From Punctularia strigosozonata HHB-11173 SS5 (taxonomy: Eukaryota; Basidiomycota; Agaricomycetes; Corticiales; Punctulariaceae), in assembly GCF_000264995.1 (NCBI RefSeq), contig NW_006767451.1:242502-306501 (forward strand): a stretch of DNA of 64,000 nt, in the 5' to 3' direction. Made by a program: the position numbers and the translations under genes. The stretch's first letter is position 1. Every line of letters begins with the position of its first letter. The notes under the pieces were generated by a model. The model did not search any database, was not told the origin of the DNA, and was given only the letters and a program-made list of their open reading frames with translations. This document shows positions 13,316-58,454 of this stretch, piece by piece.

Positions 13316-13433
13316 GAGGAGAAGCGCGGCGCGCCGCCCAGGTCTCTAGTCAACTTCGGTCTGAGTCTCCTCGTTGACGCTCCACTTCCTCATCGTCTCC
13401 CTTTGATATCATGTACTCGAAAGAAACACTCGA

Positions 13434-14969: not shown

Positions 14970-15084
14970 GTCGAATCCGATCTCGATGTTCGGTGCTATA
15001 TCCGGAAACCTGTCCAGCAGGCCGAATTCGATGAGCGTCTCGTGCCATCGATGTGCGATGAGTGGAGTGACGATGGGGAACAGA

Positions 15085-36240: not shown

Positions 36241-36479
36241 GTCTCCCCGGTCAGAATCTCGATGCGCAGTGAAGACAGCCGTTCACACGCATGAGAGGCG
36301 GGACCTTTGCTACATAAACGCTCCCCCAAAGCTCAAAACATGGCGCGCAATCCAAGACGACAGCGCCTACGAGCAATAGACTAGAGGTGCATAGATATGT
36401 GTACGTAATATACAGCCGATCAGCACCGAGAGCGCTTCACCATTCTCAGCGGAACGTCGCCTGAAGCCCTTGCAATGAG

Positions 36480-38976
36480 CTACGAGGACGAGGAACATGG
36501 ATTAGGGAAAGGCGCACCGGTCTTGAGCGTGACACCCATGGTCGGGTAAAGATGCTCAGCCCGCCAGTCTTGGAACGACGCGAAGCCCGACAGGTCGATC
36601 TCGACTCTCCAATCTCTCAGGAGATGCGTCAAGAAGCAAACGGCCTGGAACGAAAGGTGGTCAAGGGGTGTGCACAGATATGAAAGACACATTGAACGCA
36701 CTTCCACGAGCGCGAACTTGAAGTTGAGCACGTTAAGGTAAGAAAAGCTGACTGAGGAAGCAGTATCAATTGCGACGTTACCTTCTTGCCCAAGCATACC
36801 CGAGGGCCGAACTACACCATGCGATGTCAGCAATATGTGAACGACCGGCTCGAGAATGCACTGCTCACCGAGAACGGCAGTAGGTCATCCGTCGTTTTCC
36901 CGTCCCACCGCGAAGGTCTAGCATGCAGGTCAGCCGCGATCCCGGGATTCGGGAATGAGAGACAACTGACATGAACTCGTCGGGCTGCGGAAACATACGC
37001 GGGTTCCGATCTGCCGTACCGTCAGACAGATTTGTCTTGACAGAAAGTAGTGATGGAGCGCACTGAGGCCAACCTGGTCCATGCACATCATCGTTCCCTT
37101 CGCCACGAACACGTCATGCGTTATCTCCGGACGATCCACATCGTTATATTGTATCACGACGTCGGCCGTCGGCGAACGTATCTGCACGTACGCCGGCGCT
37201 ATCATAAGTACGTCACTCGTAAGTCACACATGAAGTAAGGATATGGGGGACTGACGGTACAGCCGCATCGCCTCGGAGAACGCGTGCAGGACCGGGTTGA
37301 GGTCGCTGAAGTCCTGGAAGGTGGGCTCCCTGTCCCCGACGACATCTGAGACATGTCGATATATCCGCTCCTGCTCTTCTGGGTGCACAGCGAGGAGCGC
37401 CAACGTAACGACAAGCGTGTGTGCCGTCGTCTCTGCGGACAGGCCATCATCGTGAATAATCCCTCGAGAAGGAAGGCCAGTGCGCTCACCATGCCCTTCG
37501 TCGCCCAACGAATTAGCGAGGATAACGAGAAGAGAACCAAGGAGACACACCAGCGAATAAGAAGATGAACAAATTGCCCATCAACTCGGACTCGTCCAGT
37601 CCCGCGCTGCCCTCTGCCTCACTCGCGGCGACCAGCCGCCCAAACACGTTCCTGTCCGTGCTCTCCGTCATGCCCCCAACTGCCTTGCGTTTCTGCACAT
37701 CTGCCCGCTTCGACGAGATTTCGGCAGTAAGGTATTGCCTCAAATCTGCATACGCGACCTTGATGGTGCGCATCCTACAATCTCATGTGAGCATGGATGA
37801 GGTGGAACGAGAGAGCAAGGATGCTTACGCGGCGCTAGGAATGGAGAGGACCCATTCGGGCGCGACGATGCGGATCAGGAGGTTGGACGAGACTGTTACG
37901 ATCACTTGATCGATCGTGCTGTGCAGACCGGGGTAAGACGGCGACTCTTCCCAGCCAATACGCATATCGACTGACAACGAGAAGCGTTAGAACGAGAGGT
38001 CACTGGAGGAAACGAAAGGATCGGCTCACATCCGCAGGCGGCAATGACAAGCAGGGCCATCTACGTTAGTGCTCCGTCAATATCGCCTTCAACGTTCAAA
38101 GCAGTGCATGCCTACCCTCGTAGTAAAACGATTGAACGCAGGGAAGTTGATCACATCTCCCGCTTTCCACGCCTCGCTGCTCTGCATCTGGTGGTACAGC
38201 GACGCTGTCACGTTCCATACGTCCGCGTACCTGTCGAACGTCGAGGCGTCAGATTCCCGCCTAGAGAGAAGATGCGCGAGGAAGGCGTGAGTGAGAAACA
38301 TACGTCTCCTGGTTGAACGCCGGCGCGGCAATCTTCCTGTGCTTCTTCCACATCGCGCCTGTGGACGTCACGACGTTTTGCCCAAAGAAGCTAGTACGAA
38401 AGCGTGAGCTCCCGTCTAAGGTGTCTTGCGAATGGAGCGCACGTACGTCAAGGTGACTGCGTCCGCCGGTTTGTCGATGTCCCCCACCGAGTCCTGGGCC
38501 ATCATTTGCTTGTACGCGTCAGGCGACGCGTTGTACATGTACCCGGTCCCGTAAAACAGTGGTACGAAGAGCAGCGCTTCGAAGGCCTTCTCGCGATATA
38601 CTACAGTGAACGTGGGTCAGCGTTCGTGGTACGCCATGACGGGATTGAAGGAGACGCGCCGGTGTTCCACGCGTCCCAAACGTACTGAGTCGCTGCGGTA
38701 TGGCTCAGCCTCTTGTCTCTGAGCTACTGTAGTGAAGACTCACAGGGGTTCCATCGACCATAAGGCAACAAGATCGCCACCGGCGTTAACGGTTGTATGA
38801 GTATGAATCGTACAGGAACACCCTTCACGGACTAGAATGACGCACGCATGGTCAGACGCGTGGACAGTGTCGGCACGTTCACGCACCTGAAGAGACCTCC
38901 ATATAACGTAAAGCCGTCGTGACACGTAGACTCCGAGGAGGAGGAGCGCGGAGTTCGCGTTCAAGAGAGACAACAT
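36480..38976 (-). CDS. Cytochrome P450, copy 1 (17 exons, two microexons)
   Basis: Seventeen exons with consistent phases give 535 residues: 38976-38887, 38831-38744, 38692-38633, 38600-38447, 38390-38304, 38230-38116, 38060-38030, 37970-37829, 37774-37551, 37495-37490 (6 nt), 37432-37256, 37198-37064, 37010-36971, 36917-36869, 36811-36782, 36716-36702 (15 nt), 36644-36480. An N-terminal membrane anchor (SALLLLGVYVSRRLYVIW) is followed by the C-helix WKKHRKIAAPAF, I-helix FIFLFAGHETTAHTL, ExxR in FSEAMRLYPPAYVQI, and the haem loop FGPRVCLGKK with Cys ligand. P450s are haem mono-oxygenases of the ER membrane using a reductase partner. The substrate is unknown. All key residues are present. Paralogue at 47767. 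Confidence 0.9.
37490..37495 (-). other. 6-nt microexon GGCATG in P450 copy 1
   Basis: Introns of 55 nt (37496-37550) and 57 nt (37433-37489) with GT-AG ends flank it. Joining gives GCT GGG CAT GAG ACG ACG, A-G-H-E-T-T of the I-helix. Without it the essential Gly-His would be missing. Confidence 0.88.
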
Positions 38977-40149
38977 CTTGCTCGAGGAAATTCCTCTCGA
39001 TCGCTATGCTTTTAAGGTCTTTCGGTCGTGCAGTAGTCGATCCATCTAGACCCACCCATCGGTCCGAGCTATCTTCTCAGCCGTTCAAGGGCGCGGTATG
39101 GGTGGCGTTGACAGTTGCGAGCGTACTCATATTTTCGTCTGTAAGTCATATTGCGGAAAGTACGCGATCGCGATGAAAGCGTGTTTGGTGTGAGACACGT
39201 CAATAGCTCTTCGACATGCAGTAATAGGTGCCTGGGTCGTTACCGCAGTTAGCTTTTGATGGCCGTCGAGAAAATCAGCATTCACCGTGCCTGAAACGCC
39301 GGCGTCACCGGGCGATATGGAAATGCTTTCGATGGTACACTGCAGAGTACGCAGCACGGTGATTCTGTTAGCATCGGTGCGATCAGTAGCCTCGCGTCTT
39401 GTATGAGCAGCAAAGCCAAGCGGAGGACCTGGACCAGGCGCGCGGAGACGACAAAGTGACCACATGGCTTCCACGTGCGGCGCTACATAGGGACTTTCCT
39501 GCTTTCGTCGCATGTTGTTTATCCTGCCGCCTAGCGACTCAGGGAAACGCAGATTACTCGAGAACTTATGTTATCTTCGCTACTACACACGCATACGCTG
39601 GAAAATCCACTGAAGCATGAAGATTTGGTCGCCACGGTCATGAGGCAGTCAGGTCACACACTTACCCCGCGGCGTTTCCCCTGCAGGTTCAGATCATTAT
39701 TGCGGTCAAAGTCCTGTGAAGGTACGTTCGTGCTATCGTATTCACTTGAACCGGACAAAGCACGATTCAATATCTCCTGTTGCAGATGTTTCCTTTTGAA
39801 TATCTTTACGTACAACCTGTGCTACGGTCCCACGAGATTATCGACATGCCAGCGCAGCGTTAACGTTTGAACGTGTACCTCCGCGTTCTATGGCTGTCAA
39901 CCTCTCGGATGGCGCGATGGCCTTCACTAGGGCATTAGGTTCAGGCGTAAACGTGCGTTCAATCATCTTCAAGTATGTCCTGAATACGCGAGCATGTGTC
40001 TCATACTCTGCATCGCACCTTAGCAGACGCAAGGAGATGCTCGCGGAATCAACACATGGTGGGCGGATCGTGGTCGGCTGGAAGTACGTGACCATGCTCC
40101 CTGTAGCATCATACTCGTCTAAAGTATCCTGTCAATACTATGATGTAGG
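38977..40149. other. Intergenic between divergent P450 copy 1 and DUF6535 copy B
   Basis: No gene recognised; presumably two promoters. The first exon of DUF6535 copy B may lie here but was not identified. Confidence 0.45.
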
Positions 40150-42837
40150 ATCTCCCCGCACCAAGCGGCGGCACCGATGACCGCTCCGATGGTCCCGGAG
40201 GATGGCCTTCCTGTCTTCAGCAGATGCTCAGACACGACAACGAAATGGTCGCAGGCTGGAACGACGAAATCGACACCATACTCATTTTTGTAAGCCATAT
40301 AAGATTCTTCACGCCCCCACATCCCCTGATGCAGTGCAAGGCGGGTCTTTTCTCCGCGATCCTGACAGCCTTCAGCGTTGAATCGTACAAGCTTCTCCAG
40401 CAAGACCCGGAGCAGACCTCGACCGATCTCCTCGCTCAAATCTCGCTGCAGCTGCAGAGCTTCTCACTCAATCCCGCTTTCGCCAATTCCACGCACACAC
40501 CGTCACTGAAACGGACACATATACCTGTGTCAGCTGTGCGCATCAACAGCCTCTGGTTCACGAGCCTGGTGCTTGGTCTGGTGTCAGCACTGACCGCCAT
40601 CTTTGCCCGCCAGTGGCTCCGCGAGTATGCCCATTGGCAGCTCTCTTCGTCCCGAGATAGCGTCCGCATCCGGCAATTCCGCCACGATGGACTCATGAGC
40701 TGGCGCGTGCCGACAGTAATGTATGCGATCTCCATCTTGCTGCAGATTGCGGTGGTCCTTTTCTTGGTTGGGCTCGTTGACTTCCTCTGGACGCTGAATC
40801 GCATCGTCGCTGGGACCGTCACTGCCTTCGTCGCCATCCCGCTGCTCCTCGCATTGGCATCTGCCATCATCCCAACGTTTGCTCCCAATTGTCCGTACAA
40901 GTCGCCACTGGCATTCTTTATATATCGTGCATCGGCGCTCACCATCTGGATGCTTGGGCAGCTCCGTGAATACCGCACGAAATATTTGATCATCAAAGGT
41001 GCTCCGGATGCAAACGTGGGTCCATCCTATGCCGAGCACCGTACGCGCCCTCTATCAGAAAGCATGCCGGCTACCTGGGTCCTTCGCGATGTAGGAAACG
41101 TTCAACGACAGCAGCCTAAGGCGCTCGATAGCGACAGTCACGCGCTAGATTGGATCCATGCATACACCTTCAATGAGAACGTGCGGGACACTATCCTTAC
41201 TGAATGTCTTCCTGACATTTCCAAAGCCAAACGAGCGCAGGTTGCGGTCGAATTAGTTGCTAAAGCCGCTGACTATCGGCTTGGCGATCTTGTACGGTAT
41301 ATCCGAGCTTTCGGGACGTCACCTCGGCTTTCCGAATTGAAGGCCAAGATACACATGAAGCTTCTGGTGGCGGTCTATGCCGATGCATGCCCCTGCTCAG
41401 ACTTGAGCTGCGTGAAGATCAACCGTACCGACATACATGCTTTGACTGAGCGACTGTCCACATTCTCACCTACCACGCAACACTCGTATTGGCAATTCTT
41501 GAAATACCGGATCATCCAGGGAAGCAAGCTGAGTGCATCCGAAATTCTGAGCTTCGCTCTCGGATTACAGGCAGCGGCGGAGAACTCATCAGGCGTTCAG
41601 GAAGAAGGTAGAGTCTCGTGTTGACGTACCCGTCGGTCGGAGTTTCATGTATACGCCCGCTTAGATGCCCGTTTGGTCCTTCAATGGGGCACCGGCTTGC
41701 CTTTCCCTGGTGATGGCTCGAAGGACAGTGGGGCTGCATCAGTCGCCTTCGATACAGCTATCACATCTGTCTTTTCCCTCTTGGAAAGTATGGCCTTCGC
41801 CGACATCCACGGTCTGCATCAAAAGCAGCCCGAATTGTTGGACAACTTCTTTGCGCACCTCAATCACTACATCCTTGCTCGCGTGCAAAGGCACAGTTGG
41901 CGTTGCCCGGCGGAGTGGATTATATTTATCTTTGGCGGCACTACATTGCCTATCCCACCTTACTTGACTGTCACGATGAGGGATTTAGCGCTTCAACGTA
42001 TGTTCGAACCTTCGGAAGAGCATGAAAGTGGACTGGGCGATGCTCTTATGCGTGCAACGGTCCCGCTTTATCTCTGGGATGTGGACCATGCACAGCTATT
42101 TCAAGGCATGACAGATGTTCGCAAGGCCAGCATTGGTGCATACCCTGTCTGCCTCTTATTAGAGGTATTTTGCTCATCATAGTGCCTGTCATCTAGCCCC
42201 GCAAATCGTTACCGATAACGGAGGAAATGAAATGCTAATACCGGATAAACCCGTGTTCTTGGATGCCATAATTCACGATTGGAACTCGATCGGTGATGTT
42301 TTTGCTATACTGCATGACCGGTTTCACTGATCTTGCTTTCGCGCAGCGCACGCCATGAGCCCATGGTATCAGAGTAATTTTTCCATGGCTACATTCCTTG
42401 AGCAAATGCCCTTTACGGAGTCTCCTCAGACATCCGCATCGCATTTGCCCAGCGTCGTACCTTCCGGTGCAGGTTTTGTCGCTGGGACAGCATCATTTCC
42501 ATTGTCCCGTGACAGCTCCTTGGGGAAAACTCAGCTCCATCCAACGACTGATTCCACCCTGCCGCAGACTGCGTTTGACTCCACCACTCGAGACGATCGT
42601 CGATCTACGGACGATACAAACACTGAGGCGGGACCTAGCAGACACGTGCGATTTAATGACGAAATGTCGTATCAATCCCTGGTCCACACATACAACAACT
42701 CGAACATTATTCCCTTCATCGCACCTACTTCTCCGGAAGAGGTGCCTTTACCCCCTTCCGACCGCGATGAAGAACATGACTTGGGGAGTGTACTTGACGA
42801 TACCACGTTATCCGAGCTACATCTGCCCTCGGACTAG
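40150..42837 (+). CDS. DUF6535 protein, copy B
   Basis: An exon near 40150-40290 (GGWPSCLQQMLRHDNEMV, WNDEIDTILIF) joins after a 45+ nt intron to AGLFSAILTAFSVESYKLLQ. The intron happens to be open in frame. FTSLVLGLVSALTAIFARQW and at least two further membrane segments (VVLFLVGLVDFLWTL, AFVAIPLLLALASAII) follow. A helical region with DWIHAYTFNENVRDTILTEC runs to 41608. One C-terminal module (41660-42120; AFDTAITSVFSLLESMAF, WRCPAEWIIFIFGG) precedes the linker MLIPDKPVFLDAIIHDW and a disordered tail with SRHVRFNDE and EVPLPPSDRDEE. Only one module, against two in copies A and C. Function unknown. The reading frame looks intact; the true start is uncertain. Confidence 0.8.
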
Positions 42838-44120
42838 AGGTCACGGTATAAAAAAGATGAACCTTCGATCCGGCAGTGTTCGCAACCTCCAACCAGTATC
42901 GACAGAGATGCATCATCATTTGAAACTTTAGCCACTGTTCAAGACCCGTTTTCCGCGACACCCTCTAATCCACTCCCGACATGAGCGTTAGCCAATAGTA
43001 TTGATGGTGTCATGAAGCATTCAGATGTGAAGATTGCCTCAGGGAGCACACGAAATGCCTCCGCATCCTCATCAAGTCGGAGCACATTCTGCGGGGAAGG
43101 GTTACGCTGTGAGGACGATAGTTCTACAACGAACCATACGAAGGGTCATCTCACAACAGCTTGTTTGCGGCGGCATCATAATTGACTATACCATGTAATA
43201 TACACACGGGTGATTCCTTGAATGTGCAGGTGCAAGGTTAATATGAACCCGCGCGAAACCTGGGGACGACCGTCTGGCGCACCTGCCCGTAAATGATAGT
43301 CAGATACTCGTGTCGACATTGAACACGTTGTGAGCGACCCTCTACCATTGCACGAGTTACTGACGCGGACGCGTTTCACAGTCCACGTTGGACTAGCCAT
43401 TGTACGGAATGAAGACACGTTGAATCCGTGTTATAGGCTGCTTAGCGATTCTTGAGACCAATCACTTCGTGAACTCGTGACATTACCTGATGCATGTATT
43501 CCCCAAATTGAGGGGGGGCCACAGCATGCTGCTTTTGATGTTCCAGTCTCCGACTACTACGGAGTACCGTAGTCTACGCGAGAACGTCATGCATCACGCC
43601 GTGATTGATGGCTGACTGCGACTTGTGCTGCACACTTTGTTGATGTCATTGCCGAAGAGCGCGAGCCGCCGATGGTTCAAGAATGCACAGTACATTCCGT
43701 TGAACTGCGTATCTCCGAATGACATTGACTCACGTTCAGTCTACAGCCATTATACCCGCCCCGAGACGAAGGCTAAAGCTTGAAGCCACAAGTGCCGTGC
43801 CAACTTCGAGTGTTCTGGGCGCTTTATCTGGGCCGATTACTCATTGTTGGCTAATCACCTGTAACGCTGTGAAGAGCAGAGATGCACGCATGGTCGATTG
43901 CGGTTATCAACGGACGCGGCCGCGGCATGGGTAGCGATCAGATAGCATCTTTAGGATTCTTGGTGTAGCTGCAGGGTAGCACATTAGTCTGAAGGGCAGT
44001 CATCCCGCGGTGCTGGAAGGCTGGAAGCCGTTTCAGGGGCTTCGTCAGGGCTGCCTACAACGGATTTTCCGAGCCTCCGGGTCGAAATGATCGCGGGGGA
44101 AGTCCGGTGGCGGTGCTACC
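42838..44120. other. Intergenic upstream of the CNNM-like gene
   Basis: About 1.3 kb with no recognisable gene or repeat. Confidence 0.45.
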
Positions 44121-47076
44121 ATGACGAAGCCGATCCTTGCCGAACCGCGCGCCGGGCCATATAGCGTGTCAGCACCGGACAGGGGCCCAGCAACTTCGCT
44201 CTTGCCACCACCTCGAATGGTACTAGCTTCCATCCATACCTCCAGATATACCACCAATCTGTTGGTAACATCTCTATCGCACATTCTATCCAAACATGTT
44301 CCCAACTTGCTCGGCTCGCTCGGTCTCCGCAACGTCGTCGATGGCGGCAGCGTCAGCGACCCGCACGTCCACACGTTCGCGAAGCGCCAGTCTCATGGCG
44401 AGTTTATCGCGTTCGCCTGTCTCATCCCCGTGTTGGTCTTGTTGTCGGGTCTGTTTGCCGGTCTGACGCTAGGGTACATGTCGCTCGACGAGACGCAGCT
44501 CAACGTGCTCTCTATCAGCGGCACACCGTGAGTCTCCGGTTTCGTTATCGTGCCGTGACGGCGCGCTCATCTAACCCGTCTGTCTCGTTCTTGCAGAAAG
44601 CAGCAGGCGTACGCCAATAAGATCAAACCTATCCGGAAGAACGGCCACTTGCTGCTGGTCACGTTGCTCCTCGCGAACATGATCGTGAACGAGACCCTGC
44701 CCGTTATTTCGGACCCTATCCTCGGCGGTGGCGTTCAAAGTGTCGTCGTCAGCACCGTCCTCATCGTCACCTTCTCCGAGATCATTCCCCAATCCGTTTG
44801 CACCCGCTATGGCCTCGCTATCGGCGCCACAATGGCCCCGTTCGTCAAAATCCTGATCTTTGCCCTGGGAATCGTCTCCTGGCCGATAGCCAAGGTGTTG
44901 CAGTTCATTCTCGGACCGCACCACGGGATCATCTACAGGCGCTCGGAACTGAAGGAGCTGATCAACATGCATTCCGCAACGGAAACGTACGGTGGCGACC
45001 TTAAGCGCGACACGGTGACGATTATCGGCGGCGCGCTCGACTTGCAGGAGAAGATGGTCAAAGACGTGAGTTCCGTGTCCCCAGAGCTTGCGACGGCCCA
45101 AAATTAGCCCGAAACGCTCCCGCTGTATGCCGTGACGCTCCCACACGGCTGGTGAACCGGCTGCCGTCGTGGGCTCTCTTTCTCCGGGTTCGCGGAAACA
45201 CGGCATGGCTAACGTCATTCTGCTTAGGCTATGACACCGATTGAGAAGGTGTTCATGTTGCCCATCGACGCGAAGCTCGACGAAGAGACCTTGCGGCGTA
45301 TATGCGCCACTGGCCACAGCCGCATACCCGTATACGAGGAGATCGATGTACCTGTCGGCGCTAGTGGTGTTATTGAAGGCAGGAAGATCAAGCCAAGCAT
45401 GCAAAAGGTCAAGAAGATCATCGGCATCCTTCTCGTTAAGCATGTGAGGGCCATCGTTTTCGAGTTGCCGACTATACTGACATATCGTTCTAGTGTGTTA
45501 TGCTCGACCCGAGCGATGCTGTACCTCTGCGGAAGATCCCCTTGAATCGTGTGACGTTCGTCCCTCAGAATGAGTCCCTCCTCGGTATCCTCGATAGGTT
45601 CCAGGAAGGTCGCTCGCATATGGCCATCGTCACACGGTTCAGCAAAGAGAAGGCTGCGAGCGTGAAGAAGGTGGTCAAGAAGAACTTGACTCAACGTTTG
45701 CGCGAGCGCGTCATGGGTGACTCAGACTCCAGCAGCGATGAGGAGCCAGATGAGAAAGAGGTACATAAGGGCGGTCGGGATGAGCCTCTCCACCCGAACG
45801 CTACGTTGCGTGGTGGCGAGTCCGGAAAGGAAGACGGTAAGCCTTTGTCGCCCGTTCGCACGAATTCGGGTCGAGGGCGGAGCAAGCGTCGTAATCCGGA
45901 CCTCGAGATGGGACTGGGGTTGGCGATGACGCCTATTGAGGATAAAGACAAAGAGCAGCAAGCGAAGAGTCGCAGGAGTAGCTTGCAGCTCTCCAGAGGT
46001 CCCGCGCTGGAGCAGAGTATGCCGGCCGATGCGGTTCTTACCCGCCAGGCCGCCCAGGATTTCTTGCAAGGCTTTGATCACGCCATCGCCCCTCTTGGCA
46101 TTATCACGCTGGAGGATGTTTTGGAAGGTTCGTAGCGCCTCATCTGAGTTTGTAGGCTTTCACTGATGAATATCGACGTTCAGAGCTCATCGGCGAGGAA
46201 ATCTACGACGAGTTCGACAAGGAAGGTCTGCACGCCGACCTCTACTCTGCCGCGCCGCCAGCAAAGGCACCGGCTCTCCAACGCAAGAATTCGGCACCGC
46301 AGCTCGGTCATGACGACAGCACGATCACGACTGGGTCCACCGTCGTTAGCGGGCCCACCGGCTTGAAGAACATCAGCACCATCGCACTGCCCGGATTCAA
46401 GAACCTGAACCCATTTTCGCGCTCGCGGAGCGCGCCGCCGACGCCGAGGAAGAAGGACAAGGTGCTCCCGATGGACGTGGTTGACGACGACGTCGTGCTC
46501 CCTCCCCCGGCCGTTGTAGTCAATCATCTGCCGCCTGCCGAACAGAACGAGCTAGAGCTACCGATTCCGGTTCCCCCGCGCATCGTCGTCCCCGAGGAAC
46601 CTTCTTCAAGTCACGGCGAGGCCTCGCCCATTACGGCCACCTTGGGTTACGGCGACGAGGGCCCGCGCATCGACGCGCCTCGCCCTGTCTCCGCTCTGCC
46701 TAGAACAGTTGTCGGCAGTTCGCTCATGCCGTCGCGTAGCACGAGCCCCGCGCCGAGTCTTGAGCTCTTCCTGCACGAGCGCCGGCGTAACAAGCGGGAC
46801 AACCCCGGCGCGGCGCAGCAGCCCCCGCCGCCCAGTCCTGTGCCGAGCCCACCGGGTACGGCCACAGGTTACGGCTCGTCGACGATCGCGAGAGCTGCGA
46901 GCGCGAAGGGCGGGAGGTTCAAGAGCAGTCCGTTGACGGGCGGGGATTTGACGGGGAGAGTCGTCGCTGAGCAGGTGAAGAGGGATTTGAGCGTGCCGAT
47001 GGACGCGGGGCGGAATCCGGGGCGTATCTCGGAGGCGAGGGAGGATGGAGACGAGCAGGAACATGAAGAGATGTAA
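44121..47076 (+). CDS. CNNM/Mam3-like transporter or regulator (DUF21 and CBS domains)
   Basis: Exons: 44121 (or 44217)-44527, 44597-45065, 45228-45443, 45494-46127, 46184-47076; the intron at 45066-45227 is long for this window. The DUF21/CNNM membrane domain is clear: LIPVLVLLSGLFAGLTLGYM, LLLVTLLLANMIVNETLPVI, VVVSTVLIVTFSEIIPQSVC. The CBS pair follows (AMTPIEKVFMLPID, TGHSRIPVYEE, then HMAIVTRFS and LGIITLEDVLEELIGEEIYD). Yeast Mam3 sits in the vacuole membrane and affects metal (Mn, Cu) sensitivity; animal CNNMs handle Mg. A charged insert divides the second CBS domain (45.7-46.0 kb), and a long Pro/Ser-rich tail (46.4-47.07 kb) is probably disordered. It is at the centre of the mirrored paralogue pairs. 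Start 44121 or Met33 at 44217 cannot be decided. Confidence 0.9.
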
Positions 47077-47766
47077 GATATTTTGAGGTGTTGAGGGGGT
47101 TCTGCTGGTCTTTTCATGGACGGAACTGCTGGAATGAGATCGGGGTAAGAGGATAGCGTACGTGTATCATTTTCGACCTTTTTTTCCCTTTTCTTTCCCT
47201 TCGCTTTTTCAACTAGCTTGCAATCGATTGCTCGTACATTGTAGATGCATTGGCTTCATCATTTTCGAGATACGTTGCGCGTTATGTATAGTATTGATAC
47301 TGACGGATGCCGGAGTGTTTTTTTGCCTTGAGCCGTGACCTGCCGCGACCTCCCCGCACGACCTTTGAATTCTTCGTCCTTCGTACCACCGTACGCGTTA
47401 CAGCACCGTGAAGCAATTTGGGCAGCGCTATGGTTGCGCACGATCGCATCCCTTTCGCTGCCACGTGGGCCCTTGCGCTATCTCACGCTGATAAACCTAC
47501 GATACCTATGAGCCCCCGCATCACACCACTTTAGAGGAATATATACTCGTGCTGAGGCCTCTCACGATTCCAGGTTCGCGAAACAGGACCCGCGTTCTCG
47601 ACTTCATGAAACAAGAAGATTGCGCGGCCTCACACTCGACATTCGGTGTGTTGTTATTGGCTGCCCAGTGCCTAAGGCAGTGATGCTGGTCGCAGGAGGC
47701 GGGTGTTCGCCACTCGGGAATGGGTTATAAAGTCGTAAACACGACGGAGGGTTCATCCCGAACGAT
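47077..47766. other. Intergenic, promoter of P450 copy 2
   Basis: No gene recognised. A TATA-like GAATATATACTC at about 47537 lies some 230 bp before the P450 start. Confidence 0.5.
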
Positions 47767-50246
47767 ATGCTGTCCGCCTCGAACGCATTGCTGCTATTCG
47801 CAGCGGCGTATGTGCTAGGTCGTATTTATGCTATATGGAAGATTCTACAGGTACGTGCTCTTATATGCTATGATGTCAAGATGGTTATAGTTTACTCCTC
47901 GTCTTCAGTCCGTGAAGGGTGTCCCTGTCCAGTTTGTTCTCATACAGCCACTGACGTCGCTCGCGATCCTCTTGCCACACGGCCGTTGGAACCCTGGTAA
48001 GCATCATGCGAACAGATGCACGCTTCCCCTTGAGATTCATCTATGCTGCAGGAACGCACTACGTCTGGGATGCCCGGAGCACTGGTACGAACAATGAACC
48101 TCATCTCATTTGCGTTCCCGTGATCACGTCTTGCCTATAGCATACAGCGAGAGGCGTTTCGAGGCCATACACTTCGTCCCGCTGTTATACGGGTCCGGCT
48201 ACTTATACAACGTGTCTCCGGAAGCTTACAAGCAGATTATGAGCCAAGATGGGATGGATATACAGAAACCGGTGGAGGGGCTCACACTCGAGTAAGGAAT
48301 ATTGACATCCCAAAGGTCCGTTGTGGCTGACTCGCATCATCCAGCTTCCTAGGGTCGAACGTGGTGGCCTCGAACGGCGACATGTGGAAAAGACACAGGA
48401 AGATTGCTGCACCTGCTTTCAATCAGGAAACGTGTGTCATCCACATCATGCCTCGGACATGGTCGCTTTGACACCGCAACGTAGCTATGCTGATGTATGG
48501 GAAGTCACGGCGAGGTTGTATCACGAAATGCTACAAAGCGAAGCATGGAAGGCTGGCGACTCCATTACATTCCCCGCCTTCAACCACTTCACGACACGGG
48601 TATGATCGAATAACGTCCCTGGTGGATTACTAGTGCTGAGCTGAATGACCTCCAGATTGCCCTCCTGGTCATTGCTGCCTGCGGCTGTGGGTCATGAACG
48701 TTTGCGAAATTAACCGAACTCATCGTTTCCCTAGTTGACATGCGCATTGGGTGGGATGAGTCTCCGTCGTATCCCGGCTTGCACAGTACAATTGACAGAA
48801 TGATCGTCACCGTTTCCTCCAATCTCCTGTTCCGCATTCTCGCTCCGGCGTGGATCCTATCTATACCCAGCGCAATGTAAGCTTTCTCTCCAGATCTGCC
48901 CACTTCGTTTCTGTACAAGGATAGTTACCTGACGTGAACCCAAGCATGCGCCGCATAAAGATTTCCTACGAGGACTTGCAACGGTACCTTCATGCCGAGA
49001 TCTCGAACAAGCGGGCAGATTTGCGGAAGCGAAAGGCCGTCGGAGGGGCGACGGAGACTACGGATCGAAATGTGTTCGGAAGGCTTGTGACAGCGAGCGA
49101 GTCTGAGGGAAGTCGAGGCTTAGATCTTTCGGAGCTCACTGGGAACTTGTTCATATTCCTCTTCGCCGGTGGGTTCTCGACATATATCGTAGTCACCATC
49201 GCTGAACCTCTCCATAGGACACGGTAAGAGCGGCGTTGCTGCTTCTGTTCAAAAATATTGAAGGAGACTTTCAGAAACAACTGCGCACACCCTCGTAGTG
49301 ACCCTCGCGCTTCTTGCTGTTCACATGGAGGAGCAGGAGAATATTTGCCGTCACATACAAGAAACGATTGGTAACAGGGATCCGGTAGGTTGTATCGTGA
49401 ACCACAAGTGGCACATTACTGAATGGTCCCCGTAGACCTTCCAGGATTATAGTGCTTTAGGGCCAGTCTTACACGCCTTTTATGAAGCATCCCGGCTATA
49501 TCGTGAGCCATCGTACTCAGCCTTATTTCTTCTTGTGCTGACGCTCGATGCGCCATCAAGCCGCCGGTTACGTGCAGATCCGGGAACCCCAATCCAACAT
49601 CGTCCTGAAGTTCCATGATACGGAACGTCCGGACGCACAACGCGATGTTTTTGTAGCAAAAGGCATTCTTTTGTGCATGGACCAGGTCGGCTTGAGTATG
49701 TAGTTTCGGTCTTGCATGTTCAGCACGGACTGACAAAGGAAGTGCAGATCGCAATCCTCGCACGTTCCCGCAACCTGAGGACTTCATGTGAGACCGCCTC
49801 CTCTATGCAGGAATTATATTAATTCCCTATTAGTCCTTCACGATGGAGAGACAAGTCCGCCGACGACCTAGTCGCCTTTTCTGTGAGTAATTTGATTACC
49901 CACCCATGCACTTAGGTGAGTGACGCTATGCCCCATAGTTTGGCCCTAGAGTATGCTTAGGAAAGAAGGTAATGTCGTGCTCTGTTCTCATCCTCGCCCG
50001 TATTTCACCATAACCGCATTGCGATCAGTTCGCTTTCGTCGAGGTACGTCATATCCAGCTTTACATCAAATTCTATACATGCCTCCGATAACATCACAGG
50101 CTGCGTGCTTCCTCACTCACCTCCTGCGGGACTGGAAAATCGAACTGGATCTGACCGGTTACTCATCATTCGAAGAATGGCAAGCGAAATACATGTATCC
50201 GCTTATGGGGATTACACTCAAGACTGGTGCGTCGTGTCTTCGTTGA
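47767..50246 (+). CDS. Cytochrome P450, copy 2 (same exon plan as copy 1)
   Basis: Exons read: 47767-47850, 47909-47996, 48052-48084, 48141-48291, 48345-48431, 48485-48599 and further to 49168, then a 6-nt microexon 49218-49223, 49275 on, and near the end 49939-49968 (haem loop), 50029-50043 (15 nt) and a last exon to 50246. Motifs: anchor NALLLFAAAYVLGRIYAIW, C-helix MWKRHRKIAAPAFNQET, I-helix FIFLFAGHETTAHTLVV, ExxR in FYEASRLY, haem loop FGPRVCLGKK. Most exon lengths equal copy 1, the third being 27 nt shorter. It first looks broken at the I-helix; the microexon resolves this. It lies opposite in orientation to copy 1. Substrate unknown. Confidence 0.86.
49218..49223 (+). other. 6-nt microexon GACACG in P450 copy 2
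   Basis: Flanked by introns of 49 nt (49169-49217) and 51 nt (49224-49274). Joining gives GCC GGA CAC GAA ACA ACT, A-G-H-E-T-T. Intron positions match copy 1 exactly. Confidence 0.88.
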
Positions 50247-50579
50247 AAGAGCTGCACATTCGGGTGCGCTGATTATGACATCGATGGTAGGGGATGTCCC
50301 GCTGAGGGTAGTGAAGCGGCCGTCTTGATGTGGCCATTAACCCTACTCTAGTCTGCCAGTTGTAGCTGCTCTTGGAATATTATGTCGTGAATTCTTTGAA
50401 GATACTGCGTCATGATGGATTTTGTCAATTTACCTGTACTCTAAAAAGTGATGTGCAGAGTGCTGTGGGCGACATCGCGCTCACAAATTTGGTGTTATGC
50501 ACCATATCACAAGCAATAACTTGCGTAGAGATCTTGAACGCATTGGGGTAACAAACGATAAAGAGCAGTGCGGATTGAA

Positions 50580-53500
50580 CTACCATACGGCGGGCATTGC
50601 ATAGACAAATATCGAGTACCACCGCGCTGGCTGATTTCCCTGATGGAAAGCGTGAACCTGACCGCCGTCCTCGGGTTCGAGGGTATTATTGACCTCTGCC
50701 CGGTGGCCATGTCCGATAGACAGAGCCTCAATTTCGGAATCATCCACGGGTGGAAGTGGAACATGAGTCGGTGAGATGGGCAAGGTACGGTCATCTAGGG
50801 AGAGTGTGTACCCCACCTCCCTCGAATTTCCAAGTGGATATGAAGATGCATTAGATGGTGTGATATCAATATCTGATATGTCGCTGCTGCCCTCAAGTGC
50901 AAGGGTCCGATACTCGTCCTCATCTTGAAACGGAAGGGGTACATCCGCGGGTGAAATAGGCGTGATGGTTAACGGGTCACCATCTTTGTCCTGGGTCGGG
51001 AGGTCGTTGAATTTCACGTGTCTGCTAGAACCCGGTCCGGGGGAGGAAGGAGGTGAATAGTCTGGTGGTCCGTTCCATACGTTTCTGGAATTGTCAGGCC
51101 CATTGTGCAGGGGAGCCAAAGGAGAAGATGGCAGAGACTCGGATGGATTCTCTGTTGCAGGCAAGAACCGGCTATCAGTCATGTTTGCGTCGGGTGATAT
51201 GGGCTGAGCTTGCGACCGTGGACTTATGCGATGCACTGAGCGACAAAGTACAGTGGGAGAGTCAAAATTGTTCATTTACTACTCACATTCAACCCGTATT
51301 CAGACGCACCTACTGAATTCCAATCGGATACGAGAGCGTCAACGTATGCGGGTCTTACGGGTATTAAGACTTCTTCGCCCGTGTCTTCGTCAATTTGGGA
51401 CATTATCTGCAAGCCTGTCCAAAAGTTAGACATATTCCTGAGTAACTTGGGTAGAGCACAAGTCACCATCTTTGTGATCTTCTTCAGGAAATATTTGTTC
51501 AAACATTTCATGATCCACGTCCCACATATAGAGCGGGACAGGTGGACCAAAAATGGTGCCGGTATCCGCCTCTGAGTCCATACTCTCGAACTGCTCGAAC
51601 ATCCGTTGATGTATTATCACCGATGTGGTGAATGAAAAGTCCATTGGCACGAACCGCATACCAATCACGAATCGCATCCACGCTGCTGGAAGGCGCCAAG
51701 TCGAAGAATCCGGGTCCAAGGCATGTTCCCGTAGACGGTATTTAAGGTAGCGATCGATACGAGCAAAGAATTCGTTCAAAAGGGAGGGGGCATCCTCTAT
51801 CCAGAGCAGCAAGTCTTCCGCCCGCAGTTCGAGCATGTAGTGCATGCCATCTGTTATGTGTCGCTCGAATTCGATGGACGAGGTAACTCCGTCATCCACG
51901 ACATCGACTCCAGGCACGGGTATCGTGACAATATGTTTGAGGGCTGCGTAAGCATTAGCGATGGTCGAATATATTGCATTTGTGGACGGAGATCCTGCTA
52001 GCCACCCTTCCTCAAACATCGGGCGCTGCTCTGACGCATTATCTGGCGCTTTCTCGATTAAATCAGGGTCGGGTGGCGTGGACTGGTACCGAGATCGAGG
52101 GCTCATTGCCTGTGCTATCGTATCATTTGTGGTTTGCATTAGCGCATTTTACATGCAAATTGTAGGATCTCACCTGTTGAAGTCCAGTCAGACACGATAG
52201 CATCCATGAATACCGGTTTGTCGGGTATTAACATTTCTTCGCCCGTAGTATTGTCTACATCGATACGGGGCTCTAGACCTGCGCTTATGTCACTACAATG
52301 AACACGCAAGCATTATGCACAGAGCACAGACCTTCAATACGTTGTGAAGCGTCAGTACCGTCAGCGCAAGTACCGTCAACGCGCGCGCGGAGAGCTCGTG
52401 GAACTCCTGATCCCACAGATACAACGGGACAGACGCCTTCTCGATAGCAAGTTTCATCCTGACGTCCTCCGATGGATCATATATCTGCATCAGTACCACG
52501 CTCCTGAACGTTAGCGCGAAGTAATGCGGCACGGATGGCACAGAGAGCGCGAATACAATCCATTGAGCGGGGCATCGCCAGGCGTCGTGACCAGAGATAC
52601 ACCTTTCCAGTCGGTCAAGAACATATACATTGACGTTATTGAAGAAATGAGTCTGCAGGTCCGGATTCTCCTTGGTCAGATGTGAATTATCGTCTGGGTT
52701 GATAGTCTCCAAGAGCCGAAACGTGGCTGATATGGCTGTATCAAAGGCCTTCGTCTCAATTGCACTGCGCTCCGTATCATTTATGAGGGGAGGAGATAAG
52801 CTAGCACTCCATCGAAGCACGATGCACATGTCTGAATCGTCCGTGATATTAGTTACGAGCTCTCAAAAAGCACACTATATGAAACCGACCTTCTCTGGGG
52901 ATGGGTAGTGATTCTTCCAGTGCCGCATCTATACCCAAAGCGAAGCTGCAAATTTCTGTGGGGGAAAGTAGCCCTCCGGAGATAATACGACTCTTGAGGA
53001 ACCGCCAATGTGCTCGGCGCGTTTCAGGAGAGGCGGGGGATAAGTGTTCAGTCAGGATATGTATGTCATTTCGGGATACCTTCCCGCACTTCGGATCTAC
53101 GCACGGGCAGCTGTCAGTATAGGCTGCCAGCAAGAGTTCCATGTGAATTCGAGCCTTCAACTCGGACAGCTGAGGCGCGGACCCAGTTAGTCGTATGTGA
53201 CGGAGGAGCTCGTCAAACCGGTATCCGGAAGCTGTTGCGACCAGTTTCACCACCACTCGCGCCCGTTTATCGCTCGGGATGTCCGAGAGGCATTCAGCCA
53301 GAATGCTGTCTCGCATGCCTTCATGGAAAGTGTACGCGTGGATCCAGTCTAAGGCACCGCTGTCGCTGTCGAGGTCCTCCGGAGATCGGTGTCGCACGTT
53401 CAGGACATCGCGCAGAACCCAGGTCGAGGGCATCCGCTCACGCAACGCTCGACCACGGAGATGTTCTAAGCGACGACGGATGGCGACTATTGTGTCGCCA

Positions 53501-54609
53501 CGCAGAGATTTTGGGAGAGGAATCGCCACGCTCAAACTCGCGATACGTCCGATGAGCCACAGAATAAGGACTGAAACACGGTAGATGAAGTACGCGAGCG
53601 GCGACTTATAGGGGCAACCTGGGGCGAACGTAGGGATTATCGCGGAGGCGAGCAGGAGGAATAGAGGAGCTGCGATGAAGACCGTAATGGTAATCGCGAC
53701 GATCCGGTTGAGCGTCCAAACGAACTCGGTGAGTCCTGCTAGAAAAAGGACAACAGCCATCTGGAGGAAGATGGAGATGGCGTTCATCACTGCCGGCACA
53801 CGCCAGCGAACCAGGCCATCGTGACGAAACTGCCGGAGGCGGACGGTTTCTCGTGGCGAGGAAAGGTGTTTCTCCTTGGGAATAGCTAGATGCCAAGGGA
53901 CGTACTCGCGAAGCCACTGACGAGCGAAGATAGCGGTCAATGCTGACGTCAAACTGAGGACGAGACTTGTGAACCAGAGGCTGTTGATACGTGTTGCGGC
54001 CTCTGCTATGGACGTGGTTCGGGGTGATGGAATATACGTAGAATTGATGAATGCAGGGTTGACCGAAAAACTTTCCAGCTGAAGCGAAATCTGTGACAGC
54101 GTAACCGCCGATGCTTGTTCTGGGTCCTGCTGCAGCATCTGGTACGACTCGACGGTGAAGGCTGTGAGAACTGCGGAGAAAAGACCAGCCTGTCTTTGCA
54201 TGAGGAGAGATAGCCAGGATACGTACGACCTATGAACTCACAAAAATAAGTATAGTGTTGATCTCATCGTTCCAGTCCTCGATCATCTTCTTATCGTATC
54301 TGAGCATTTCTTCAAGACAAGTCGCCCATCCACCCTCAATCTCCGAATCGCCGTCACGTCCTTTCGGTGCAGAATGCTGAATTGCGCATCAATCGAGCGG
54401 TGAAGGCGGGCAAGGACAGTAGATACCTTGAGTTGCGCAGGATCAACCCGCCATGATCCCACTTGCTGTCCCTCGCGTTCGTGGGCCACAGGGGTGGCCC
54501 GGGGTGGTAACAGCGATGGCGCGTACGACGCGTCGCGTAGCTCCATGCTGCCTCGTTCATGCATAGGATGGGCTTGAGCCATCGCAAGCTCGGTGCCGTG
54601 AGCGAGCAA
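50580..54609 (-). CDS. DUF6535 protein, copy C
   Basis: An upstream part near 54609-54300 (WRVDPAQLKVSTVLARLHRS; then GGWATCLEEMLRYDKK, WNDEINTILIF) joins to AGLFSAVLTAFTVESYQMLQ. The membrane segments follow (TSLVLSLTSALTAIFARQWL, AVVLFLAGLTEFVWTL), then SDSGALDWIHAYTFHEGM to 52849. Module 1 (52829-52400; AFDTAISATFRLLETI, WRCPAQWIVFALSVP), linker MLIPDKPVFMDAIVSDW, module 2 (52100-51480; ELRAEDLLLWIEDAPS, PLYMWDVDHEMFEQIF), linker VLIPVRPAYVDALVSDW and a disordered tail (51275-50580) with SRHVKFNDL and DVPLPFQDEDEY complete it. Closest to copy A in layout. Function unknown. No stop was found within the domains; the first exon is uncertain. Confidence 0.8.
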
Positions 54610-56398: not shown

Positions 56399-58454
56399 AT
56401 GTCTGAGTACGGAATGCACGAGGCGCCTGCGGACGTCGTCGTCGCGAACAATGACGAGCTCGTACGCAAGCTCGACGCGAACGTCATCGCCGATGCCGCG
56501 AAGGCGGACGCGCAGGAGCACAAGATGACCGTACGCGAAGCGTTTATCATCCATCGGAGGGCCATCTTCTGGAGCATGGCTCTTTCTGCCGCGTAAGTCG
56601 CTGCCATGTCCTCTCTGAGGGAACCCGTTCTTACAGTCTAGCAGCCTGATAATGGAAGGTTACGACGTTGTCGTGGTACGTCATAAACAGCTTCAGCTTG
56701 TGAAGGCGACATTCACTCACGATTCTTCTCTACAAGATCGCCTCCTTCTACGGTCAACGTGAGTCGAACTGAAGATTCTACATGCATTACTCGTACTCAC
56801 GTATGGCGCGCTCCCAGCCAACTTCCTCAAGCGCTTCGGCGTCCCCGCGCCCAACACCGACGCCGGTTACGTGATCCCGGCCGAATGGCAGTCCGCGCTT
56901 TCGAACGGTTCTTCCGCAGGCGGCATCATTGGCTTGCTGGTCAACGGTTGGGCTGCGGACCGCTTCGGGCCCAAGATCGTAATGATGTGTTCGATCGTCG
57001 CGCTCACAGGCTTCATCTTCATCATGGTCTTTGCCAAGTCGCTCACGATGCTCGTCATTGGCGAGGTCTTTTGTGGCATTCCATGGGGCGTCTTCCAAAC
57101 GCTGACGACCGCGTACGCGTCCGAAGTGTGCCCGATCCAGCTTCGTGGATACCTCACCACGTACGTGAACCTTTGCTGGGGCGTCGGCATCCTGCTCTCG
57201 TCTGGCGTCGTAAAGGCCACCCTCAACATCAACAGCGACTGGAGTGCGTACCCCCCTGTTCCCTCTTCGTTGAGGCGCTCGTATTGAACCAATGATCGCT
57301 TTCAGGTTGGCGCCTACCGTTCATCATCCAGTGGGTGTGGATCGTCCCACTCTTCCTCATCGTCTACTTCTGCCCACCCTCGCCGTGGTGGCTCGTACGT
57401 AAAGGCCGGCTCGACGAGGCCGAGCAATCGATCATGCGCCTCACAAACCCTGCCGTCTACACCTCTGATCAGGCGAAGAGCACCGTCGCAATGATGGTGC
57501 ACACGAACGAGCTCGAAAAGCAGGCAGCCGCAGGAACGACCTACTTCGACTGCTTCAAGGGCACGGACCGCAGGCGGACGGAGGTGGTGATGATGGTGTT
57601 CGCGATGCAGCTTCTGAGCGGAGAGAACCTGATCGGCCAGGGTGTGCAATTCTTGCAGACGGCGGGGATCTCGACCAGCTTGTCGTTCAGCTTGAACATG
57701 GTCCTCAACTCGATGTTCATCATCGGAACCATCATTTCTTGGGGCTGTGAGTCATCGATCGGCGTTTACGTCTTCATAGTGAGCTGATCCCCTCCGGCAG
57801 TGATCACCTGGTTCGGTCGACGCACGTTGTATACGGCCGGGATGGCGATCATGGCCGTCGTCCTCTTCATCATCGGCGGGCTCGGCTTTATCGGAACCAA
57901 CTCGTCGACGATGGCCATCGGCTCGCTGCTTATCGCGCTCAACTTCATTTACAACTCCACGCTAGGCCCGATCTGCTACACGCTCATCGGCGAGATCTCG
58001 TCCACGCGTCTGAGGCAGAAGTCGATCGTGCTGTCCAGGATATCGTACCAGATCATGAACATCGTGTGTGGGATCATCGTCCCGCGCATGCTTTCGCCAA
58101 CATCCTGGAACTGGGGACCCAAGTCCGGCTTCTTCTGGGCGGGCAGCGCCACGCTGTCGACGCTGTACTGTTTCCTCAGGTTACCGGAAACCAAGTGCGT
58201 TTTCATATGATGGACAGCTCACCGTGATATGTCTGACGTAACCATAGGGGGAGGAGTTATGGAGAGCTTGACCTGCTGTTCGAGAGCAAGACGCCGGCGT
58301 GGCGATTCAAGTCGACGAAGGTCGATCGTAAGCATCCTTCATTTCTTCCTCCCTTCTGCTGTGTCATTGAGTATGGCCTCCAACAGAATTTGGCACTCAC
58401 CACCATGGCTCGGTCCACCCGGATACCAAGGAGGAAATTCACCACTTGGAATGA
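56399..58454 (+). CDS. MFS sugar transporter, alpha-glucoside (maltose) permease type
   Basis: Eight exons fit: 56399-56592, 56646-56676, 56737-56758 (22 nt), 56818-57243, 57306-57746, 57801-58194, 58248-58327, 58387-58454. Family signatures: ALIMEGYDVVV and IASFYGQ in TM1, GYVIPAEWQSALSNGSSAGG, GWAADRFGPK between TM2 and TM3, PSPWWLVRKGRLDEAE, GQGVQFLQTAGIS, WFGRRTLYTAG, LPETKGRSYGELDLLFE. Twelve membrane segments are expected. Relatives are proton-coupled plasma-membrane importers of maltose and other alpha-glucosides; the exact sugar cannot be told. The C-terminus has GTHHHGS. Start at the Met just before SEYGMHEAP. It looks intact. Confidence 0.9.

What the first reader, a model, noticed from the sequence alone, without database searches (positions are those of the whole stretch)
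37433..49274. Six-nucleotide microexon codes the Gly-His of the P450 I-helix motif in both paralogues
Seen: read without it, both genes would join ...FLFA to ETTA and lack the conserved Gly-His. In each intron region a 6-nt piece (37490-37495 minus, GGCATG; 49218-49223 plus, GACACG) is flanked by AG and GT, with introns of 55/57 and 49/51 nt. Inserting it gives A-G-H-E-T-T in both, with different codons. Established: AGxET is the oxygen-activation motif of P450s. Inference: the microexon predates the duplication and has been kept although the introns have diverged. Automatic gene models would probably miss it and call an in-frame loss or a pseudogene. Splicing of so short an exon may depend on strict intron signals.
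Basis: partly seen in the sequence, partly recalled or inferred. Interest (0 to 1): 0.85.

Follow-up and report, generated by a model that had tools for sequence, protein, structure and literature searches.

The report
Six-base exon in fungal P450 genes
Two related fungal enzyme genes each seem to carry a six-letter exon that supplies two amino acids of the enzyme's oxygen-handling motif; it looks real and long preserved, but exons of this kind are already known in fungal P450 genes.

Summary
Two intact, intron-rich P450 genes lie at 38976-36420 (minus; 18 exons, 527 aa) and 47767-50328 (plus; 19 exons, 523 aa), 72% identical. Each has a 6-nt exon 10 (37495-37490 GGCATG; 49218-49223 GACACG) completing A-G-H-E-T-T. 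Among the frame-keeping, stop-free parses enumerated within set limits (7 and 8), it is the only one giving AGHETT. It adds 15.8 bits to the Pfam P450 score of both proteins. Shuffled introns give such a Gly-His exon at rates of 0.00037 and 0.00047. Length, phase and place are shared although synonymous sites are saturated, so it probably predates the duplication. Splice signals are not exceptional: donors somewhat above the median, acceptors middling, one weak. No transcripts or fungal genomes were available; splicing is inferred. The kind is published: P. chrysosporium P450 genes have exons down to 6 bp, and a 2026 paper names an 8-nt exon in the same AGHETT motif of CYP5141A1 and "multiple examples" in the I-helix. 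The difference is that 6 nt keeps the frame, so skipping would give a full-length enzyme lacking Gly-His. New member of a known kind; modest interest.

The parts
36420..38976 (-). P450 gene A, 18 coding exons, 527 aa: 38976-38887, 38831-38744, 38692-38660, 38600-38447, 38390-38304, 38230-38116, 38060-38030, 37970-37829, 37774-37551, 37495-37490, 37432-37256, 37198-37064, 37010-36971, 36917-36869, 36811-36782, 36716-36702, 36644-36518, 36460-36420
   Evidence: exon chaining guided by gene B, no internal stop; PF00067 206.8 bits
47767..50328 (+). P450 gene B, 19 coding exons, 523 aa: 47767-47850, 47909-47996, 48052-48084, 48141-48291, 48345-48431, 48485-48599, 48656-48686, 48735-48876, 48945-49168, 49218-49223, 49275-49384, 49436-49502, 49561-49695, 49748-49787, 49834-49882, 49939-49968, 50029-50043, 50100-50226, 50291-50328
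   Evidence: exon chaining, no internal stop; PF00067 179.6 bits
37490..37495 (-). 6-nt micro-exon (exon 10 of 18) of gene A, GG/CAT/G, completing Gly-His of AGHETT
   Evidence: only enumerated parse giving AGHETT; best Pfam score of the 5 A parses sent
49218..49223 (+). 6-nt micro-exon (exon 10 of 19) of gene B, GA/CAC/G, completing Gly-His of AGHETT
   Evidence: only enumerated parse giving AGHETT; best Pfam score of the 5 B parses sent
37496..37550 (-). intron 9 of gene A, 55 nt, GTGTGT...GACGAAG, CTAAT branch-like site
37433..37489 (-). intron 10 of gene A, 57 nt, GTGAGC...CCGCAG, a multiple of three and stop-free in frame
49169..49217 (+). intron 9 of gene B, 49 nt, GTGGGT...TCCATAG
49224..49274 (+). 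intron 10 of gene B, 51 nt, GTAAGA...CTTTCAG, in-frame stop if retained
36702..36716 (-). second micro-exon of gene A, 15 nt, FALVE just after the haem-binding FGPRVCLGKK
50029..50043 (+). second micro-exon of gene B, 15 nt, FAFVE just after the haem-binding FGPRVCLGKK
49385..49435 (+). intron 11 of gene B, 51 nt, with no counterpart in gene A (A exon 11 is 177 nt; B exons 11 and 12 are 110 + 67 nt)

Best explanation
Each gene encodes a P450, probably membrane-anchored by its hydrophobic N-terminus (read by eye, not tested), whose I-helix oxygen-activation motif is cut by two introns six bases apart. This leaves a constitutive, phase 1-1, 6-nt exon that supplies the last two bases of the Gly codon, the His codon and the first base of the Glu codon. 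Both flanking introns (49-57 nt) are of ordinary length for these genes. The spliceosome most likely recognises them by intron definition and removes them one after the other, because six bases leave little room for both splice sites to be bound at once (inferred; proposed for plants in PMC8831610). The exon was present before the two genes duplicated and has been kept because losing it removes Gly-His from the catalytic motif. Shown: sequence, frame, splice dinucleotides, presence in both paralogues, best fit to the P450 profile. Inferred: actual splicing, order of intron removal, constitutive inclusion, age.
For: Only enumerated parse giving AGHETT among 7 (A) and 8 (B). It gains 15.8 bits of PF00067 over the skipped form in both full-length proteins, 206.8 vs 191.0 and 179.6 vs 163.8. 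On C-terminal parts, A 152.1 vs at most 144.5 for 4 of the 6 other parses, B 120.8 vs at most 109.6 for 4 of the 7 others. A single intron would be 118 or 106 nt, while the 31 other introns run from 46 to 73 nt. AGHETT of B aligns with AGHETT and AGYETT in the two solved P450s whose alignments were shown. With B exons 11 and 12 added together, 15 of 18 exon lengths are equal in the paralogues; the others differ by 6, 3 and 3 nt. pS 0.81 (saturated) with pN 0.171: old duplication, protein conserved. A published 8-nt exon lies at the same motif in CYP5141A1 (PMC12940212).
Against: No transcript evidence. No homologue outside the window: 0 confirmed relatives in one scan each of viral and prokaryote contigs and 0 matches to the three-part DNA pattern in each, although these are not fungal collections. 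A's micro-exon acceptor is weak (2 of 31 leave-one-out scores lie below it). Only 1 of the 4 flanking introns has a CTNAY branch-like site anywhere, against 22 of the 31 others; within 10-40 nt of the 3' end 1 of 4 against 20 of 31; with looser patterns 2 of 4 against 27 of 31, and 3 of 4 against 22 of 31. Each gene also has other parses with a middle exon (1 in A, 4 in B), none giving AGHETT.
Confidence: 0.9

Rival explanations
1. The 6-nt exon is optional: regulated skipping gives a full-length P450 without Gly-His that folds but has impaired or altered oxygen activation, an on/off or activity-tuning switch.
For: 6 nt is frame-neutral and the skipped forms (525 and 521 aa) have no premature stop, so a premature stop would not mark them for decay (inference). 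A's micro-exon acceptor is weak and branch-like sites are scarce in the flanking introns. Splice variants of CYP63A1 in P. chrysosporium and an Xlr2 micro-exon switch in Trichoderma virens are reported (PMC1184071 passages; PMC11121469 start of abstract, and passages).
Against: A skipped intron would be 118 or 106 nt, far outside the 46-73 nt of the other introns. The micro-exon donors rank above 22 and 20 of 31 others, and B's micro-exon acceptor above 17 of 31. No RNA data were available to look for skipping.
Confidence: 0.08
2. No 6-nt exon: one long intron is removed, FLFA joins ETTA, and both enzymes truly lack Gly-His or are decaying pseudogenes.
For: The skip parse is open in both genes. 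Gene A has one GC-AG intron (donor GCGCGT, intron 3), which could be an early defect.
Against: Loss of 15.8 bits of P450 profile score in both, double-length intron, an in-frame Gly-His exon at the same phase in both genes at a chance rate of about 0.0004 each, and intact 527- and 523-aa reading frames with amino-acid conservation at saturated synonymous divergence.
Confidence: 0.01
3. Another junction is used, such as A's second donor with a later acceptor giving AGTT, or B's GGLSETT or GGRLSETT parses, so the motif differs from AGHETT.
For: These parses exist.
Against: None gives the same protein in the two genes, and the three non-skip alternatives sent per gene score 7.6 to 17.3 bits (A) or 11.2 to 12.4 bits (B) below the micro-exon form.
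Confidence: 0.01

Closest known systems
8-nt micro-exon gg/cac/gag in the AGHETT motif of Phanerochaete chrysosporium CYP5141A1 (PMC12940212, parts 1 and 2 of 3 of the text read)
   Same: A tiny exon inside the same I-helix motif of a basidiomycete P450, starting after the first base of the Gly codon; [quoted passage not shown]
   Different: Here 6 nt, ending after the first base of the Glu codon, so the downstream intron sits 2 nt further upstream and the exon is frame-neutral, whereas skipping 8 nt shifts the frame. The family of our genes is not established.
P. chrysosporium P450ome micro-exons of 2-10 aa, shortest exon 6 bp (PMC1184071, passages, section 11)
   Same: Multi-intron P450 genes with frequent small introns (45-55 bp) and exons as short as 6 bp.
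   Different: The text seen does not say where its 6-bp exon lies or print its sequence; Table 1 itself was not seen.
One-nucleotide exon of CYP621A in Fusarium (PMC12940212)
   Same: Ultra-small exon inside a conserved P450 motif, missed by gene models, backed there by RNA reads.
   Different: PKG motif, not the I-helix; ascomycete; 1 nt.
Conserved small micro-exons of plants, 1-15 nt (PMC8831610, passages including part of the abstract)
   Same: Old, coding micro-exons, often misannotated; the flanking introns are thought to be removed one after the other.
   Different: Plant genes; strong intronic signals reported there, whereas here donors are somewhat above the median, acceptors middling to weak and branch-like sites scarce.

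Membership tests
Cytochrome P450 superfamily (PF00067) | Profile match above the curated cut-off | tested here: met
   179.6 bits (B) and 206.8 bits (A) against a cut-off of 22.8
Cytochrome P450 superfamily (PF00067) | ExxR, haem-binding FxxGxRxCxG and I-helix AGxET(T) | tested here: met
   EAMR/EASR, FSFGPRVCLG and AGHETT in the spliced proteins; AGHETT only if the 6-nt exon is included
Cytochrome P450 superfamily (PF00067) | Haem-thiolate spectrum and monooxygenase activity | not testable with these tools
   needs expressed protein
Coding micro-exon of a fungal P450 I-helix motif | Exon of a few nt flanked by AG and GT that is needed to complete the motif | tested here: met
Coding micro-exon of a fungal P450 I-helix motif | Conserved in related genes | tested here: met
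   present in both P450 genes of the window, the only two found by tblastn; other fungal genomes were not available, so conservation beyond this pair is not tested
Coding micro-exon of a fungal P450 I-helix motif | Inclusion seen in transcripts | not testable with these tools
   no RNA data available
CYP5141 | Predominant motif pattern E-T(92%)-L(95%)-R and F-S(89%)-[AG]-G-[PA]-R(93%)-[AG]-C-[LI]-G (PMC3990721 table passage) | tested here: not met
   EXXR here is EAMR/EASR; the haem motif FSFGPRVCLG fits in part. The pattern is one of frequencies, so single members could depart from it. Not filed as CYP5141
CYP5141 | Sequence identity to named family members (the usual 40% rule, recalled) | not testable with these tools
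   no named fungal P450 sequences of this family were available
Regulated cassette micro-exon (Xlr2-type switch) | Both inclusion and skipping isoforms made under different conditions | not testable with these tools
   skip isoform is open, but no expression data

The most novel reading that the evidence does not exclude
The 6-nt exon is a frame-neutral catalytic switch kept through an old duplication: its skipping makes full-length P450s lacking only Gly-His of the oxygen-activation motif, so the fungus can tune the activity of both enzymes by splicing rather than by expression.
Probability: 0.07. Interest if true: 0.6.

Novelty: new member of a known kind. Interest (0 to 1): 0.27.

Why it matters
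It is a clean pair of examples, in paralogues with saturated synonymous sites, that a 6-nt exon in the catalytic core of an enzyme can apparently be preserved over long times with unexceptional splice sites. It also warns that fungal P450 gene models lacking Gly-His may be annotation errors rather than divergent enzymes. The kind itself is already in print, so the gain is mainly a careful further case, with a frame-neutral exon that makes skipping testable at protein level.

Tried and rejected
Own-genome search: not possible, no genome is held for the window. Homologue searches with the paralogue alignment gave 56 pattern stretches in viral contigs and 57 in prokaryote genome contigs, none confirmed as a relative; a three-part DNA pattern for the motif with both introns found 0 matches in each. 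These are not fungal collections, so the zeros say nothing about fungi. A third P450 or fragment in the window: tblastn at E up to 1 gave 4 matches outside the two genes, E 0.17 to 0.98, taken as chance. An 8-nt exon as in CYP5141A1: not among the parses. Recent gene conversion as the reason both genes share the exon: rejected because synonymous sites are saturated and 13 of 17 corresponding intron pairs align no better than shuffles (z 0.1-1.4; the other 4 have z 2.7-3.7, among them the intron downstream of the micro-exon at 2.9, 200 shuffles per pair, splice ends not held fixed, which inflates z). Assignment to a CYP family: motif patterns did not settle it, and NCBIfam gave 5 families for protein A, all below their cut-offs (B was not scanned). 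Passages of PMC3899305 on P450 gene structure gave nothing on micro-exons. A first comparison of splice-site scores used training introns scored with their own matrix; it made the flanking acceptors look worse than they are, and one search replaces it with leave-one-out scores. Structure prediction was not run.
Full report
WHAT WAS CHECKED. Both regions were read directly. I then built complete gene models from exon anchors, using each gene as a guide to the other. Gene A runs 38976-36420 on the minus strand, 18 exons, 527 aa. Gene B runs 47767-50328 on the plus strand, 19 exons, 523 aa. Neither has an internal stop. All 35 introns of the models end in AG and 34 of 35 begin with GT; intron 3 of A begins with GC. 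The proteins are 72% identical, and each matches PF00067 far above the cut-off. tblastn found no third P450 in the window; its 4 matches outside the two genes had E 0.17 to 0.98.

IS THE MICRO-EXON MORE THAN CHANCE. Between the fixed neighbouring exons I enumerated parses with GT donors, AG acceptors, one or two introns of at least 40 nt and a middle exon of up to 45 nt that keep frame and have no stop, with the outer sites confined to the neighbourhood of the known exon ends. There are 7 in A and 8 in B. One in each gives AGHETT, and it is the 6-nt exon in both. The only other protein common to both lists is the skip (A-E-T-T-A). On C-terminal parts, the micro-exon form scored best in both genes: A 152.1 bits against 136.3 (skip), 137.8, 134.8 and 144.5; B 120.8 against 105.0 (skip), 109.6, 108.5 and 108.4 (4 of the 6 alternative A parses and 4 of the 7 alternative B parses were sent). 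For full-length proteins the gain over the skip is 15.8 bits in each. Dinucleotide shuffles give a Gly-His 6-nt exon at 0.00037 and 0.00047 per gene, one starting with any Gly codon at 0.016 and 0.0135, any 6-nt exon at 0.044 and 0.068 (000 shuffles each). The skipped intron would be 118 or 106 nt, whereas the other 31 introns of the two genes span 46-73 nt.

AGE. With B exons 11 and 12 (110 + 67 nt) added together to match A exon 11 (177 nt), 15 of 18 exon lengths are equal; exon 1 (90 vs 84), exon 4 (154 vs 151) and the last exon (41 vs 38) differ. Synonymous differences are saturated (pS 0.81, beyond the correction) and pN is 0.171 over 522 aligned codons. Of 17 corresponding intron pairs, 13 align no better than shuffles (z 0.1-1.4) and 4 have z 2.7-3.7, one of them the intron downstream of the micro-exon (z 2.9; the one upstream 0.8). 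The two micro-exons use different codons (GGG CAT GAG; GGA CAC GAA). An exon older than the duplication and kept since is the simplest account; without outgroups this remains inference.

SPLICE SIGNALS. Against leave-one-out weight-matrix scores of the 31 other introns, the donors at the exon before the micro-exon and at the micro-exon itself rank above 22 and 22 of 31 (A) and 26 and 20 of 31 (B). The acceptors rank above 2 (at the micro-exon) and 17 of 31 (A), and above 17 (at the micro-exon) and 12 of 31 (B). CTNAY branch-like sites within 10-40 nt of the 3' end are in 1 of the 4 flanking introns and 20 of the 31 others; looser patterns give 2 of 4 against 27 of 31 and 3 of 4 against 22 of 31. 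So the donors are somewhat better than the median, the acceptors middling with one weak, and branch-like sites if anything scarce: no sign of unusually strict signals overall. The matrix is small and comes from the same two genes, so this is a modest test.

HOW IT MOST LIKELY WORKS. Short introns in fungi are generally thought to be recognised across the intron (general knowledge, no call). With only six bases between the sites, both introns can hardly be bound at once, and removal one after the other is the likely route; passages of PMC8831610 report this for plants, often with the downstream intron first. The exon is phase 1-1 and frame-neutral: skipping gives proteins of 525 and 521 aa without Gly-His. 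Intron 10 of A is a multiple of three and stop-free, so its retention would insert 19 residues; intron 10 of B has an in-frame stop. The two alignments shown with solved P450s place AGHETT of B on their AGHETT and AGYETT. That this is the I-helix oxygen-activation motif is established knowledge, also stated in PMC12940212.

WHAT IS KNOWN. Doddapaneni and co-workers (PMC1184071; passages, section 11) report that P. chrysosporium P450 genes carry micro-exons of 2-10 aa, shortest exon 6 bp, in nearly one third of the P450ome, and suggest a link to alternative splicing. Nelson and Syed (PMC12940212; parts 1 and 2 of 3) report a 1-nt exon in Fusarium CYP621A with RNA reads and mention an 8-nt exon gg/cac/gag in the AGHETT motif of CYP5141A1 of P. 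chrysosporium, with multiple examples of I-helix micro-exons on a web page that I could not see. Our exon begins at the same base of the Gly codon and ends 2 nt earlier. Whether a 6-nt form is on that page is unknown. In contrast, the abstract of PMC11121469 says that functional micro-exons had not been described in filamentous fungi before 2024. Seven text searches on micro-exons with P450, basidiomycete, fungi, mushroom, Phanerochaete, AGHETT or I-helix showed listings only: 2 of 2 papers, 20 of 132, 2 of 2, 12 of 14,198, 10 of 20, 10 of 16 and 1 of 1. In those rows I saw no other paper whose title or abstract describes a 6-nt Gly-His exon; the unlisted papers were not looked at, and most subscription journals are not in this library.

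VERDICT. It is a further member of a known kind, with one distinguishing feature (frame-neutral length) that makes a regulated skip conceivable but unproven.

Noticed in passing
36702-36716 (minus) and 50029-50043 (plus): A second micro-exon, 15 nt, coding FALVE/FAFVE directly after the haem-binding motif in both paralogues; 8 of 18 (A) and 8 of 19 (B) exons are 51 nt or shorter.
   Followed up: partly
38601-38659 (minus): Intron 3 of gene A is GC-AG (donor GCGCGT), where gene B has GTACGA: a GC-AG intron or an early splice defect.
   Followed up: partly
49385-49435: Intron 11 of gene B has no counterpart in gene A: an intron gain or loss since the duplication.
   Followed up: partly
9757-10590 (plus), 40149-41624 (plus), 52849-54237 (minus): Three ORFs with DUF6535 (PF20153), one of them between the two P450 genes: a repeated family in this stretch.
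   Followed up: no
3708-6974 (plus): Long ORF with reverse transcriptase and RNase H domains; LINE-like retroelement is my reading.
   Followed up: no
12158-13345 (minus), next to 13434-15533 (minus): ORF with a phage-integrase match just below the cut-off (26.2 vs 27.1 bits) beside a 699-aa ORF with no Pfam match; a tyrosine-recombinase retroelement is my guess.
   Followed up: no
44559-45107 (plus), 61819-62589 (minus), 56763-57287 (plus): CNNM transmembrane domain, BAR_2 domain and sugar-transporter domain in ORFs around the P450 genes.
   Followed up: no
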